Shown here: positions 32,820 through 63,552 of the stretch, in pieces
Numbering within the stretch: the first letter of the stretch is position 1
Layout: each line of letters opens with the position of its first letter
NCBI RefSeq assembly: GCF_903893715.1
Contig: NZ_CAITNG010000133.1
Location: 1-64,000, forward strand
DNA length: 64,000 bases
Direction: 5' to 3'
Source of the DNA: an uncultured Mucilaginibacter sp.
GTDB taxonomy: Bacteria; Bacteroidota; Bacteroidia; Sphingobacteriales; Sphingobacteriaceae
Program-made: the position numbers and the translations under genes
The notes under the pieces: model-generated
The model's input: the letters and a program-made list of their open reading frames with translations, nothing else
Databases searched by the model: none
Told to the model about the DNA's origin: nothing

Positions 32820-32824
32820 ATTAG

Positions 32825-32912
32825 AAGCAAGAGTCAAGAATCGAGAATCAAGACAGAAAGAAAACAACCGTTCGCCCTCTGACTTCCGATATCAGTCCTC
32901 CGACTTCCTATC
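32825..32912. repeat. Two period-7 degenerate arrays
   Basis: 32825-32852 consists of heptads such as AAGCAAG, AGTCAAG. 32878-32912 consists of TCTGACT, TCCGATA and similar, in exact 7-base register. The second runs over the stop codon (32908-32910) of the convergent glycosyltransferase. Confidence 0.65.
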
Positions 32913-34569
32913 TCACCACCACCAAACTTACATGGCCTAAAGTACTGTCGCGGGTAGCTTTGTTTAAAAAGCGGGGCGTAACTTTGGTTATCCAAAACCG
33001 GTTGAAGGTAGTTACTTCGCTCATGGTCCAGCCTTTTGTTTTTTTGAGGTTGGCCAGATTATCGGTAGGCGTGTATAGTAGAAACGGTTTTGGCGGCAGG
33101 TTGCCGTTGCCGTTCAAATCGGCGGTGTACAGGGGTTGGTTCAGGTAAAACTCGAGCGGGTAGGTATAGTCGCCCATGCTTTGTACCACGGGCATATCTT
33201 TGCGGTTCAAACTGTTGATATAAAAAGCAGCTTCGCTGCCGGCCTGGTATTTAAGCAGCGATGGGTAAAAAACCAGGTTGAGGTACAGGTTCACCACGCA
33301 GGCCACCAAAACCGTCATCATGCCAATCCTTTGGTAAGGCACTTTAGTGATTCGCTGTGGCAGAAAAACCATTAAAACACACAGTATGCTTAGCAAGCCA
33401 CCGATATACCAGTTAAAGGTTTCGGGCCAATAAAAATAGTGCAGTATTTTAATGCCGGCTATCAGCAATATCACCACTACTATTTGGGTAATACGTACCG
33501 CTTTGATGCTTTTAACACCATACAAATACTGCGCTGTGATGATGGCATAAAACGGGAAGATGATATTGGTATAAAACGGCAGTTGGAATTTGGATGCCGA
33601 AAACACCAGAAAAGTAAGCAAAGAACCACAAATGCAATACCACTCGGCATTGTTTACATTTTTGATGTTCTTTTTAAAGAATTGAAAGATTCCCGCGAAC
33701 AGCAATAGCGACCAGGGCAAAAAGGCCCAAAGCGTAGTATGTACAAAAAAGAAAGGGTCGCCGTGGCCTTTAATGGGGCCGTTGTTAAAAAAGCGGCCGA
33801 ACTGGCTGTCCCAAAAAAAGAATTTGATGCCCGATACATGGTTATGCCCAAAAACCACTACTTCGGGGTGGCTGTCGAACTGGGCGTAGAGGCAATAAAT
33901 TTCCGGCAGGATAAACAGCAATATCATCATTGCGGCCAATAGCCAACGCAGGTTAAAAAGTGCTGCCCATTGTTTTTTGATGATGAGCTCGCCCGCTATG
34001 GCACCACAGATGGGGATAAGGGCGAACATGCCTTTGGTCATGATGGCGCAGGCGGCAAACAGGCTGCCCGCAAATAAATGCCCCCATATTTTGCTGTGCT
34101 GCGCTTTATAAAAATGGTAAACCGACGCGATAATGAGTCCGGTTAGGTATGGCTCTGCGCGCACGTCGTTGTTCGATAGGACGATATGCTCGGCGGTAAG
34201 CAATATCAGCACCGCCCACAACGCTATTTCTGTATTGTATAGGTTTTTGGCCAGCAGGTAGGTATACCGGGCGCCCATCATCAAAAACAAAATAGCGGGC
34301 AGCTTATAGGCCCAGGTGGTAAAACCAAAGCATTTAAACGAGAGCGCGATGATCCAAAAAGGGAAATGGGGTTTATCGAGCCAGTTGCGGCCTTCGGCAA
34401 ACAGGTCGGTATAATCGTGCCGCAGCACCATGCTTTTGGCAATGCCTGCGTAGAGGGCGCCATCAGGCGCGATGATGGTAACGAACAGGCCGCTAAAGTT
34501 GAGCAGTACCGCGAGGCCTATAAAAGCATATAGCCATTTGTTGATACCGGGTTGCTGTTGGGGGTGCAT
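32908..34569 (-). CDS. ArnT-like membrane glycosyltransferase (GT83/GT39 type)
   Basis: A 553-residue protein with about 11-12 hydrophobic segments. The first periplasmic loop has the conserved acidic residue in APDGALYAGIAKSM followed by NWLDKPHFPFWI, the arrangement of the catalytic Asp in ArnT/PMT enzymes. The C-terminal part is soluble. It uses a polyprenyl-phosphate sugar to glycosylate lipid A or another surface acceptor at the periplasmic face; the substrate is unknown. The stop codon lies inside a heptad repeat array. Confidence 0.82.
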   Translation of the reverse strand: MHPQQQPGINKWLYAFIGLAVLLNFSGLFVTIIAPDGALYAGIAKSMVLRHDYTDLFAEGRNWLDKPHFPFWIIALSFKCFGFTTWAYKLPAILFLMMGARYTYLLAKNLYNTEIALWAVLILLTAEHIVLSNNDVRAEPYLTGLIIASVYHFYKAQHSKIWGHLFAGSLFAACAIMTKGMFALIPICGAIAGELIIKKQWAALFNLRWLLAAMMILLFILPEIYCLYAQFDSHPEVVVFGHNHVSGIKFFFWDSQFGRFFNNGPIKGHGDPFFFVHTTLWAFLPWSLLLFAGIFQFFKKNIKNVNNAEWYCICGSLLTFLVFSASKFQLPFYTNIIFPFYAIITAQYLYGVKSIKAVRITQIVVVILLIAGIKILHYFYWPETFNWYIGGLLSILCVLMVFLPQRITKVPYQRIGMMTVLVACVVNLYLNLVFYPSLLKYQAGSEAAFYINSLNRKDMPVVQSMGDYTYPLEFYLNQPLYTADLNGNGNLPPKPFLLYTPTDNLANLKKTKGWTMSEVTTFNRFWITKVTPRFLNKATRDSTLGHVSLVVVR

Positions 34570-40482: not shown

Positions 40483-41202
40483 CTATAACAGTTGTTCAAA
40501 CTTTTCCCAAAAACCATCTTTAGGTAAGGGCGCAAATATATCTACCGGTTCTTTTTTTATAGGGTGGATAAACTGTATGCGCCGGGAGTGCAGGCAAATA
40601 CTTTTCTTCAAACTGCCGCGTGGGTAACCGTACTTATTATCGCCAACAATGGGGCAGTTTAAGGTGGATAATTGCACCCTGATTTGGTGCGGGCGCCCGG
40701 TTATAGGGTCGACTTCAATTAAATAATAGCCGTTCAGTTCACCCAAGAGTTTGTAGTTTAGTTCGGAGCGCATACTGCCGTTTACCTCGTGGTCGTAGGC
40801 TTTGGTTACGTTTTTTTGCGGGTTTTTTATCAGCCAGTGTATCAGGTTGCCTTGTTCGGGCACAGGGCGGTGGCGTACCACGGCCAAATAGGTTTTATGC
40901 ACTTCGCGGCTTTTGAACAAGGCGTTCATCCGCTCGAGCGCCTTACTTGTTTTGGCAAACATGATGACCCCGCTCACCGGTCGGTCAATCCGGTGCACCA
41001 CGCCTAAAAAAGCGCCATTGGGTTTATTGTATTTGGCGGCAATGTATTTTTTTACCTTTTCATCGAGTGATTCATCGCCCGTATCATCCACCTGCACAAT
41101 ATCGCCCGCGCGCTTATTCACCGCAATAAGGTGATTATCCTCGTAAAGGATATCCTTATCTGTGATATCGAATTTCGGATTTACGATTTCGAATTTGGCC
41201 AT
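40483..41202 (-). CDS. RluA-family pseudouridine synthase
   Basis: A 239-residue catalytic domain without an S4 domain. Start at the ATG giving MAKFEIVNPKFD; 13 more in-frame codons exist upstream in repeat DNA. The catalytic Asp is in VVHRIDRPVSGVIMFAK, followed by DPITGRPHQIRVQLS. Modifies uridines in rRNA or tRNA; which position is unknown. Codons 2-13 are part of a heptad repeat array. Confidence 0.88.
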   Translation of the reverse strand: MAKFEIVNPKFDITDKDILYEDNHLIAVNKRAGDIVQVDDTGDESLDEKVKKYIAAKYNKPNGAFLGVVHRIDRPVSGVIMFAKTSKALERMNALFKSREVHKTYLAVVRHRPVPEQGNLIHWLIKNPQKNVTKAYDHEVNGSMRSELNYKLLGELNGYYLIEVDPITGRPHQIRVQLSTLNCPIVGDNKYGYPRGSLKKSICLHSRRIQFIHPIKKEPVDIFAPLPKDGFWEKFEQLL

Positions 41203-41259
41203 TCTTAATTTACTTACACATTCGCAATACGCATATCGCATTACGCAATACTAATACTG
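41164..41259. repeat. Period-7 array spanning rluA-family start and panB stop
   Basis: 41164-41198 has heptads such as GATATCG, AATTTCG inside the first codons of the pseudouridine synthase. 41218-41259 has CAATACG, CATATCG, CATTACG. The panB stop codon (41251-41253) is within the last units. Confidence 0.7.
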
Positions 41260-42101: not shown

Positions 42102-42241
42102 ATTTCGGATTTTGGATGTTCAATTTTGGATGTATTAATTGTATGATTTATGATATTGGAGGTCCAATTTGTGGATTGCCATTGTCAAATAGCCAAAAAT
42201 CAAAAAAATCCGAAATCCCAATTCCGAAATCCGAAATTATC
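42102..42241. repeat. Period-7 degenerate arrays upstream of carA
   Basis: 42102-42157 has eight heptads beginning ATTTCGG, ATTTTGG, ATGTTCA. 42207-42241 has AATCCGA-type heptads. Register is exact within each block. Confidence 0.65.
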
Positions 42242-49135: not shown

Positions 49136-49170
49136 ATTTCGGATTTCGGATTTTCAATTTCGAATTTATT
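49136..49170. repeat. Period-7 array before the adaptor gene
   Basis: Five heptads, the first two both ATTTCGG and the third ATTTTCA, lying 9 bases upstream of the HlyD start and before the TolC stop. It may carry the ribosome-binding region; no other gene signal. Confidence 0.6.
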
Positions 49171-50738: not shown

Positions 50739-51392
50739 ATGTACCTGATAAAGACCCCGCTACTCCTAAAAAAGCTTTACCCGGGTTTGATATGGAATTT
50801 CGACAGGGACCGGCGGCGCATTTATCTCAGCTTTGACGATGGCCCTATACCCATTGTTACACCCTTTGTGTTAAAAATTTTAAAACGCTATAATGCCAAA
50901 GCTACATTTTTTTGCATTGGCGATAATGTGCAGAAGCATCCCAAGCTATTTGAGCAGGTAAAAGCTGCCGGGCACGCCATTGGCAACCATACTTTTAACC
51001 ACCTGCGCGGCTGGAGCACGGATACCCAAACGTATACAGAAAACTTTAAAAAATGCGATGAATTGCTGCACAGTCCGCTGTTTAGGCCGCCGCACGGGCG
51101 CATAAAGCGCGAGCAAATAAAAGCATTGCGGGCAGCTGCCGACAACGACCTTAAAATTGTGATGTGGGATGTGCTAAGTGGCGATTTTGATATTGGCCTG
51201 AAACCAGAGCAATGCCTGAAGAATGTTTTATCGGCCACGGAAAATGGTTCGGTGGTGGTTTTTCATGATAGTTTGAAGGCTTTCCCGCGGTTGGAGTATG
51301 TTTTGCCCCGGGCTTTGGAGTATTGGAATAAGATGGGGTATGAGTTTGTTAGGATGGAAGATGGAAGAAGTAAGATGGAAGACGGCTTATAG
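50739..51392 (+). CDS. Polysaccharide deacetylase (CE4, NodB domain)
   Basis: A 217-residue protein. Metal and catalytic motifs: SFDDGP (catalytic Asp and metal Asp), NHTFNH (two metal His), RPPHG and a late HD-containing strand (VVFHDS). Acts on an N-acetylated glycan such as peptidoglycan or chitin-like material. No signal peptide in the usual form. The C-terminal RMEDGRSKMEDGL is encoded by a heptad repeat array that also supplies the stop codon, so the last dozen residues are probably not part of the ancestral enzyme. Confidence 0.88.
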   Translation: MYLIKTPLLLKKLYPGLIWNFDRDRRRIYLSFDDGPIPIVTPFVLKILKRYNAKATFFCIGDNVQKHPKLFEQVKAAGHAIGNHTFNHLRGWSTDTQTYTENFKKCDELLHSPLFRPPHGRIKREQIKALRAAADNDLKIVMWDVLSGDFDIGLKPEQCLKNVLSATENGSVVVFHDSLKAFPRLEYVLPRALEYWNKMGYEFVRMEDGRSKMEDGL

Positions 51393-51472
51393 TTCATGGA
51401 TCATAGTTCATGGTGGGTTGATTTCGGATTTCGCCTGCCTGTCGGCAGACAGGAATTTTCGATTTCGGATTT
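51352..51472. repeat. Period-7 array with embedded palindrome
   Basis: Twelve consecutive 7-base units fill 51352-51435 exactly. The first include GGATGGA and AGATGGA; later ones switch to TCATGGA and TCATAGT, then TTTCGGA. A palindrome (CTGCCTGTCGGCAGACAGG, 51435-51453) follows, after which the heptad pattern resumes to about 51472. The deacetylase ends inside. Confidence 0.75.
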
Positions 51473-51565
51473 TTGTGGTGTTGAACTTGGTTTTGACATA
51501 AGCGGACTAATTACAACTTTGTTGCGGGTGCATTTGTTTAATTATAGTTGTTTAAAACCTAAATC

Positions 51566-52404: not shown

Positions 52405-52500
52405 ATAGCGATGGGTTTCAAACCCATCGCTATGATGAGCCAAGTAGGGCGTTTCAAACGCGATACCATGTTAAGCGCTCGTTACAAACGAGCGCAAGAG
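52405..52500. repeat. Cluster of REP-like palindromes (TTnCAA centre), copy 1
   Basis: Three palindromes in a row: ATAGCGATGGGTT with its complement around TCA (52405-52433), GCGTTTCAAACGC (52449-52461) and GCGCTCGTT-ACA-AACGAGCGC (52475-52495). The last two recur in the same order at 54157-54203. The first shares its stem with the htpG terminator. Confidence 0.8.
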
Positions 52501-57520: not shown

Positions 57521-57539
57521 GTGGCAAACATAGTAAAAA

Positions 57540-57611
57540 ATGAGGAAATGTGCGAATTAGCAAATGTGCGGATGAGGAAATGTGCGAATGCGCTGATGAG
57601 TAAATGTTGAT
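57540..57611. repeat. Period-8 array, copy 2 (nine units)
   Basis: Nine units of exactly 8 bases including ATGAGGAA (twice) and ATGTGCGA (twice); the others follow the pattern ATGnGnnn or ATTAGCAA. It begins 20 bases upstream of the prfB start. Confidence 0.8.
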
Positions 57612-63332: not shown

Positions 63333-63354
63333 AATAGCGCAAAGGTGCAAAATA

Positions 63355-63394
63355 ATGTGCAAATGAGTAAATATGCGGATGTGCAAATTATGAG
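63355..63394. repeat. Period-8 array, copy 3
   Basis: Five units: ATGTGCAA (twice), ATGAGTAA, ATATGCGG and ATTATGAG. It lies 23 bases upstream of the glnS start and shares words with the arrays at 54.2 and 57.5 kb. Confidence 0.75.
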
Positions 63395-63517: not shown

Positions 63518-63552
63518 GCTTTTTAGTCCTTGTTCTTTGCTCCTTATTCCTT
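63518..63552. repeat. Period-7 array
   Basis: Five heptads, read on the plus strand GCTTTTT, AGTCCTT, GTTCTTT and similar; complement has AAGGAGC and AAGGAAT words. Confidence 0.6.

What the first reader, a model, noticed from the sequence alone, without database searches (positions are those of the whole stretch)
51352..51435. Heptamer arrays: twelve 7-base units in exact phase, with several unrelated vocabularies in one array
The array runs through purine-rich units (GGATGGA, AGATGGA), then TCATGGA/TCATAGT, then TTTCGGA, always in 7-base phase. Comparable period-7 arrays with other words are at 32825-32912, 41164-41259, 42102-42241, 49136-49170 and 63518-63552. A change of word without change of period suggests a copying process with a 7-base step or selection on spacing. 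They are not CRISPR arrays because units are 7 bases with no spacers.
Basis: partly seen in the sequence, partly recalled or inferred. Interest (0 to 1): 0.7.

Follow-up and report, generated by a model that had tools for sequence, protein, structure and literature searches.

The report
Heptamer arrays are S23-gene element arms
The odd seven-base repeats look like stray "arms" of a widespread gene element (a small four-helix protein gene bracketed by inverted seven-base repeats), which may explain why seven-base repeats are common in bacterial genomes.

Summary
The period-7 arrays are real: 21 noncoding period-7 segments against 0.4 expected in a 405-kb sample of this genome. They are not one array changing its word; each word is the arm of a different element. 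The genome's 11 PF05635 genes (S23, 23S rRNA-intervening-sequence protein) all lie between inverted tandem arrays, ten best at period 7 or 14 and one at 8, each gene with its own word. In 40 genus loci, 31 combine best period 7/14 with an inverted repeat of 10 or more, against 2 of 263 control genes. Word follows protein (Mantel r 0.55, 0 of 5000 permutations). The 51352 array joins three families: GATGGAA (L151), TTCATGG (L143) and ATTTCGG, the word of an S23 family found in 38 of 149 genus genomes but not here. Distant phyla follow: 78 of 93 loci best at 7/14, 14 at 8/9. The GGGAATC heptamers of Xanthomonas are such arms. I infer that S23 protein binds its word and keeps or spreads the hairpins, as RAYTs do for REPs; neither binding nor mobility is shown.

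The parts
51350..51385 (+). GATGGAA-word block: solo arm of the S23 family represented in this genome by L151 (G000:C112:89188)
   Evidence: local score 24 to L151 arms, next own locus 10, 40 shuffles max 15; L151 lies between inverted GATGGAA arrays
51354..51392 (+). last 12 codons and stop of a polysaccharide deacetylase gene, encoded by the array
   Evidence: 217 aa; the 37 close congener matches end at residue 203-212 of it, mostly 203-207; the 16 plus-strand ortholog loci stop after 205-211 aa (minus-strand loci were not turned there and are not used); PF01522
51386..51415 (+). TTCATGG/TCATAGT-word block: solo arm of the S23 family of L143 (G000:C64:38922)
   Evidence: local score 19 to L143 arms, next own locus 12; shuffle mean 11.1 but the best of 40 shuffles also reached 19
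51421..51433 (+). first part of an ATTTCGG-word arm
   Evidence: word of the arms of S23 loci L290-L319 of the genus (by inspection); no match among the 40 loci scored
51434..51453 (.). 20-bp palindrome that interrupts the ATTTCGG arm
   Evidence: sequence, fold
51454..51474 (+). second part of the ATTTCGG-word arm
   Evidence: sequence, word as
32823..32856 (+). AGAATCA-word arm, family of L146
   Evidence: score 22 to L146, shuffle max 15; equal score to L181, whose protein is the nearest to L146 among the 40
32876..32915 (-). GTCGGAG/GTCAGAA-word arm, family of L147
   Evidence: score 22 to L147, shuffle max 16
41168..41200 (+). ATTTCGG-type arm
   Evidence: TRF period 7; word as; no match among the 40 loci
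41214..41251 (.). TACGCA-word arm, family of L142
   Evidence: score 20 to L142, shuffle max 15
42102..42135 (+). left arm of an ATTTCGG hairpin (ATTTCGG ATTTTGG ATGTTCA ATTTTGG)
   Evidence: same unit order as arms of L290-L319; folds with 42202-42237; no match among the 40 loci
42202..42237 (-). right arm of the same hairpin
   Evidence: fold; period-7 score 15.0
49136..49170 (+). ATTTCGG-type solo arm
   Evidence: period-7 score 12.5; word as; no match among the 40 loci
57539..57590 (.). period-8 arm (AATGTGCG), family of L150, the one S23 gene here with 8-base spacing
   Evidence: score 21 to L150, shuffle max 15
63354..63388 (.). period-8 arm, family of L150
   Evidence: score 28 to L150, shuffle max 15
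63518..63552 (.). weak period-7 stretch, family uncertain (best L148)
   Evidence: score 16, shuffle max 14

Best explanation
The arrays are arms, solo or as gene-less hairpin pairs, of elements whose full form is: heptamer arm, S23/PF05635 gene of about 120 codons, inverted heptamer arm. Each S23 lineage has its own word; words differ between paralogs in one genome and are shared by close S23 homologs in other species. Shown: the architecture, its breadth, the word-protein link, and the match of many solo arrays to S23 arms. Inferred (about 0.4): S23 protein, a ring of five four-helix bundles in the solved Xanthomonas case, recognises its word in the folded arm (RNA or single-stranded DNA) and keeps or spreads gene-less hairpins, as RAYT does for REPs. 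Arms of different families come to lie side by side at the same gene ends, which gave the three-vocabulary array at 51352. The confidence below is for the shown part.
For: All 11 PF05635 genes of this genome lie between such arrays; weakest are L147 (longest exact inverted match 8) and L152 (upstream arm score 4.5). 40 genus loci: best period 7/14 in 38, plus an inverted repeat of 10 or more in 31, both arms 8 or more in 28; 263 control genes: 57, 2, 3; 4 RAYT genes: 2, 2, 0. Stem score 20 or more in 20 of 40 genus and 41 of 93 distant loci, 0 of 263 controls; 14 or more in 36, 56 and 7. Distant loci: 78 of 93 at 7/14, 14 at 8/9; one arm scoring 11 or more in 71, 0 of 465 shuffles. Word against protein: Mantel r 0.546, 0 of 5000; word shared in 88% of pairs with protein similarity 0.7 or more, 9-22% at 0.3-0.7, 0-1% below. 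Solo arrays beat every shuffle with an own S23 gene in 13 of 21 sampled arrays outside the window (one only 14 to 13) and in 7 of 14 window pieces, with one tie. ATTTCGG S23 family: exact word in both flanks in 18 of 30 loci, in at least one in 24; genomes with the gene have more ATTTCGG matches, median 35.5 against 16, p 2.6e-4. Two or more GGGA(A/T/G)T units on the expected strand beside 21 of 29 S23 loci of Xanthomonas and relatives, 11 on both sides, background 2 of 406. Purifying selection: dN/dS 0.04-0.11 in 8 of 12 pairs, dS saturated in 4. Coxiella's S23 element carries tandem heptamers (PMC4990558). 2gsc (XCC0516) has five chains, a homopentamer according to PMC4990558.
Against: No insertion was caught: at the one clean presence/absence site (G030 with a 103-bp AAAGC-word hairpin, G013 empty, G064 with 2 bases) G017 and G059 have related hairpins, so loss is likelier. 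The five matches in Pfam scans show no other domain and I know of no catalytic activity in S23 (recalled). The ATTTCGG arrays have no matching S23 gene in this genome (best matches 33-44% identical, its already counted genes). 9 of 40 genus loci fail the joint period and inverted-repeat test; 15 of 93 distant loci have another best period, 14 of them 8 or 9; another start-codon rule gave 58 of 80 and 12 of 14. 8 of 21 sampled arrays have no own S23 match. Shared word and protein can come from common descent without binding. The reversed ATTTCGG control also matched strongly in some genomes, for example G048 33 and G096 39.
Confidence: 0.87

Rival explanations
1. Plain replication slippage favouring 7-base steps makes heptamer arrays anywhere, and S23 genes are incidental.
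For: Heptamers as the commonest long-repeat class, with a polymerase-footprint idea, from Mrazek 2007 (seen only as cited in PMC4679880 and PMC4692102); one perfect array of about 12 TGAACCA copies; one clean 7-base indel.
Against: Inverted pairs around one gene family, 31 of 40 against 2 of 263; words shared among many loci and a fixed composite order recurring across species; no 7 peak in the indel spectrum.
Confidence: 0.06
2. The heptamer hairpins are a host feature (terminators or protein-binding sites) that came first, and S23 genes insert into their loops.
For: In this genome one word alone has 71 matches while there are 11 S23 genes; the same site carries different families in different species; G030 and G017 have a gene-less hairpin where G013 has an S23 gene.
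Against: Word and S23 protein co-segregate across species; at that site the hairpin word differs from the arms of the S23 gene.
Confidence: 0.12
3. The arms act at the RNA level only: stems cut by RNase III as in 23S rRNA intervening sequences let the S23 cassette sit harmlessly between genes, and dispersal is by ordinary recombination.
For: Coxiella's IVS has a 28-bp stem cut by RNase III; arms lie close to the gene, median 24 nt before ATG and 10 nt after stop, median stem 33 nt in the 92 of 133 loci with score 14 or more; in some cyanobacterial plasmids S23 genes sit between cas genes.
Against: Does not explain lineage-specific words or the many solo hairpins.
Confidence: 0.25

Closest known systems
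23S rRNA intervening sequences with an S23p gene (Coxiella, Leptospira)
   Same: S23p gene inside terminal inverted repeats; in Coxiella tandem heptamers before the gene, varying in number between strains (PMC4990558, passages)
   Different: here between protein genes, in many copies, each lineage with its own word, with many gene-less arms; the passages I read treat the heptamers as part of a decaying gene region
REP/RAYT (TnpA-REP) and REPINs
   Same: a gene flanked by its own palindromes plus many dispersed gene-less copies (recalled; listings)
   Different: S23 is not a Y1 transposase; the arms are tandem heptamers; of 4 RAYT loci here, 0 have two period-7 arms scoring 8 or more
GGGAATC heptamers of Xanthomonas and GGGGA(C/T)T of Nostoc (PMC4692102)
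   Same: dispersed intergenic heptamers; 70 and 75 inverted pairs in two Xanthomonas genomes; the Xanthomonas word flanks 7 of 8 S23 loci titled Xanthomonas
   Different: that paper reports no general association with mobile elements; a term search of its main text gave 0 hits for S23 and XCC0516; the Nostoc word was not tested here
TAACTGA repeats (PMC4679880) and cyanobacterial STRR
   Same: heptamer arrays in Beggiatoaceae, cyanobacteria and some Bacteroidetes (passages)
   Different: an S23 link for these particular words was not tested

Membership tests
S23/IVS-type element | PF05635 gene | tested here: met
   11 genes over cut-off in the genome, five rechecked; none of the 11 lies in the window, whose arrays are gene-less
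S23/IVS-type element | terminal inverted repeats next to the gene | tested here: met
   stem score 14 or more in 36 of 40 genus and 56 of 93 distant loci, 7 of 263 controls
S23/IVS-type element | location inside 23S rRNA | tested here: not met
   flanks of the 11 genes read as protein-coding sequence by eye; an rRNA search was run on the window only, no match
S23/IVS-type element | excision by RNase III | not testable with these tools
   -
REP/RAYT | Y1 transposase partner | tested here: not met
   the four PF01797 genes carry other palindromes
MITE | target-site duplication and clean insertion | tested here: inconclusive
   4-bp AGCT at one presence/absence site, but outgroups point to loss
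CRISPR | repeats with unique spacers | tested here: not met
   7-base units head to tail
Phase-variable microsatellite | unit-number change between close relatives | tested here: inconclusive
   1 clean 7-base difference among 16 array loci read

The most novel reading that the evidence does not exclude
S23 proteins are a large family of sequence-specific nucleic-acid-binding rings in which each of five subunits grips one heptamer (8 or 9 bases in some lineages), as TRAP does with its triplets (recalled). Ring and word co-evolve and form a distinct class of selfish element whose gene-less hairpins account for much of the heptamer excess in bacterial genomes.
Probability: 0.33. Interest if true: 0.95.

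Novelty: new variant of a known kind. Interest (0 to 1): 0.82.

Why it matters
It offers an origin for heptanucleotide repeats reported since 2007 without explanation, ties together scattered reports (Xanthomonas GGGAATC, Coxiella IVS heptamers), and gives a widespread protein family of unknown function (PF05635) a concrete, testable ligand: its own flanking word. Ten searches of the held open-access library (listings only, with passages read from three papers) showed no paper making this link; subscription journals and preprints were not searched.

Tried and rejected
CRISPR, a known RNA family (no Rfam match in the window at gathering scores) and a phage origin (no match of one S23 protein in the phage collection) were dropped. 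RAYT/REP was considered and rejected as the partner. Slippage alone was rejected. A clean difference at the AAAGC hairpin was first read as an insertion and withdrawn after outgroups were added. An alignment search of genome contigs failed and was replaced by a single protein. The pentamer idea (arms of five units, 35 nt) is only weakly supported: median stem 33 nt, but stems of four units are commoner than five (29 against 19). Rows dropped: one of 94 and one of 134 loci with too short a flank; arrays within 700 bases of the S23 gene L147 and two contigs that read only N.

Full report
What was checked. The array at 51352-51435 is the strongest period-7 stretch of its length in the window (47 of 77 lag-7 identities; the only six 84-mers at that level lie there). 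In 405 kb of this genome, 21 noncoding period-7 segments were found against 0.4 in shuffles, with echoes at 14 and 21 and a smaller excess at 8. The genome is a 4.0-Mb draft in 161 contigs; that it is a Mucilaginibacter-like Bacteroidota is my inference, no call names it.

From arrays to hairpins. Several arrays come as inverted pairs, for example G000:C10:12142 and 12191 or window 42102 and 42206; others are single. Words are dispersed: three GATGGAA units with up to 3 mismatches match 71 places in this genome against 1 for the reversed control, while 128 of 149 genus genomes have none; three ATTTCGG units match in 133 of 149 genomes, though the reversed control also matches well in some of them (27 against 4 here; G048 87 against 33, G096 3 against 39). 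These are overlapping matches, not distinct arrays. The composite ATTTCGG ATTTCGG ATGTTCG ATTTCGG recurs at many loci in several species, which slippage at each locus would not give.

The gene. One inverted GATGGAA pair (L079) enclosed a small reading frame of the S23/23S_rRNA_IVP family (PF05635). This genome has 11 such genes; each lies between inverted tandem arrays, ten with best period 7 or 14 and one (L150) with 8, each with a different word; L147 and L152 are the weakest. The 40 genus loci are these 11 and the 29 further ones fetched, the best of one genome each; that call lists many more. 38 had best period 7 or 14; 33 had an inverted repeat of 10 or more; 31 had both; 28 had both arms scoring 8 or more. 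For 263 control genes of this genome the figures were 57, 19, 2 and 3; for 4 RAYT genes 2, 4, 2 and 0. Stem scores of 20 or more: 20 of 40 genus loci, 41 of 93 distant loci, 0 of 263 controls; 14 or more: 36, 56 and 7. In the genus 60 of 61 sampled genomes carry the family.

Words follow proteins. Arm similarity and protein similarity correlate over the 40 loci (Mantel r 0.546, 0 of 5000 permutations, best permutation 0.247). The word is shared (arm score 16 or more) in 88% of pairs with protein similarity 0.7 or more, in 9-22% between 0.3 and 0.7, in 0-1% below. This shows that the arms belong to the element; it does not by itself show binding.

Solo arrays are S23 arms. Scored against the arms of all 40 loci, the window pieces at 32823, 32876, 41214, 51350, 57539 and 63354 match one own S23 gene above all 40 shuffles by 4 points or more; 63518 is marginal (16 to 14); 51386 matches L143 with 19, which one shuffle also reached. 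Six ATTTCGG pieces match none of the 40. Of 21 arrays in the other sampled stretches, 13 beat all shuffles with an own S23 gene, one of them only by 14 to 13; two more match S23 arms of other genomes; six match nothing, three of them ATTTCGG-type. The ATTTCGG word belongs to a further S23 family found at 60% identity or more in 38 of 149 genus genomes; this genome has nothing above 44%. Of the 30 fetched loci 18 have the exact word in both flanks and 24 in at least one; five of the other six show the variant ATTTCGA. Genomes with that gene have more ATTTCGG matches (median 35.5 against 16, Mann-Whitney p 2.6e-4; the 60% cut was my choice after seeing the list). So the finding joins three families: GATGGAA, TTCATGG, ATTTCGG. 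The first block also supplies the last 12 codons of the upstream polysaccharide deacetylase, whose orthologs end about residue 205.

Breadth. Of these 94 loci 93 had usable flanks: 78 best at 7/14, 14 at 8/9, one other; 71 had an arm scoring 11 or more, against 0 of 465 shuffles; shuffles gave 7/14 in 11.6%. They span Pseudomonadota, Bacteroidota, Nitrospirota, Cyanobacteriota, Synergistota, Chloroflexota and others (groups assigned by me from record titles, several with a single locus). A cruder start rule gave 58 of 80 and 12 of 14. Among the 29 best loci, mostly Xanthomonadaceae and relatives, two or more GGGA(A/T/G)T units lie forward upstream or reversed downstream in 21 (11 on both sides; 7 of the 8 titled Xanthomonas), against 2 of 406 background pieces: the GGGAATC word of PMC4692102 (passages read). 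In Coxiella the S23p element has three tandem heptamers before the gene, two in some strains, and a 28-bp stem cut by RNase III (PMC4990558, abstract and passages read).

Dynamics. G013 and G030 are 94.2% identical over 378 kb of aligned blocks. Of 16 distinct array loci that I read, 9 keep their length, 5 carry other sequence (at two of them another heptamer vocabulary), one differs by 7 bases and one by a net 14. Where G013 has an S23 element with word AGATTTG, G030 and G017 have a hairpin of about 84 bp with a different word. The site upstream of one gene (recalled as pyrB) holds a TATTCAT-type S23 gene here and an ATTTCGG-type one in G042. The clean difference at the AAAGC hairpin is better explained by loss. 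No 7-base peak appears among indels. S23 genes are under purifying selection (dN/dS 0.04-0.11 in 8 pairs; 4 more saturated), yet some copies hold stop codons.

Mechanism. A conserved small protein, a ring of five in the solved Xanthomonas case (five chains in 2gsc; homopentamer according to PMC4990558), encoded between stems of 7-base units whose word goes with the protein, suggests direct recognition; constant spacing with free wording is what a ring with one unit per subunit would select. The median stem of 33 nt (interquartile 28.75-40.25 in 92 of 133 loci) fits four to five units. How gene-less copies multiply is unknown; a helper role like that of RAYT is the simplest model, and RNA-level excision as in intervening sequences is the main alternative, not exclusive of it.

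Noticed in passing
window 52405-52500: Two REP-type palindromes in a row, resembling those that flank RAYT genes L153 and L155 of this genome.
   Followed up: partly
L162:465-565: A stretch of about 100 bp accounts for nearly all the listed matches (202 in all) of this locus in G013, G030 and G017: a dispersed repeat, apparently unrelated to the heptamers.
   Followed up: no
L067, L069, L075, L077 near the GATGGAA arms: A second motif, ACCCATATTTACCCAT or ACCCATAAATACCCAT, lies beside GATGGAA arrays at several loci of this genome.
   Followed up: no
L266, L267, L274: In cyanobacterial plasmids S23 genes sit between cas genes (cas6 and cas4, cas10 and cmr3), as if inserted in the operons.
   Followed up: no
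L257: An S23 gene in a Saprospiraceae bin has arms of period 9, besides the period-8 families; spacing may vary by lineage.
   Followed up: partly
G013/G030 comparison: A palindromic CATTGCGAGG...GAAGCAATCC repeat family accounts for several indels between the sister species.
   Followed up: no
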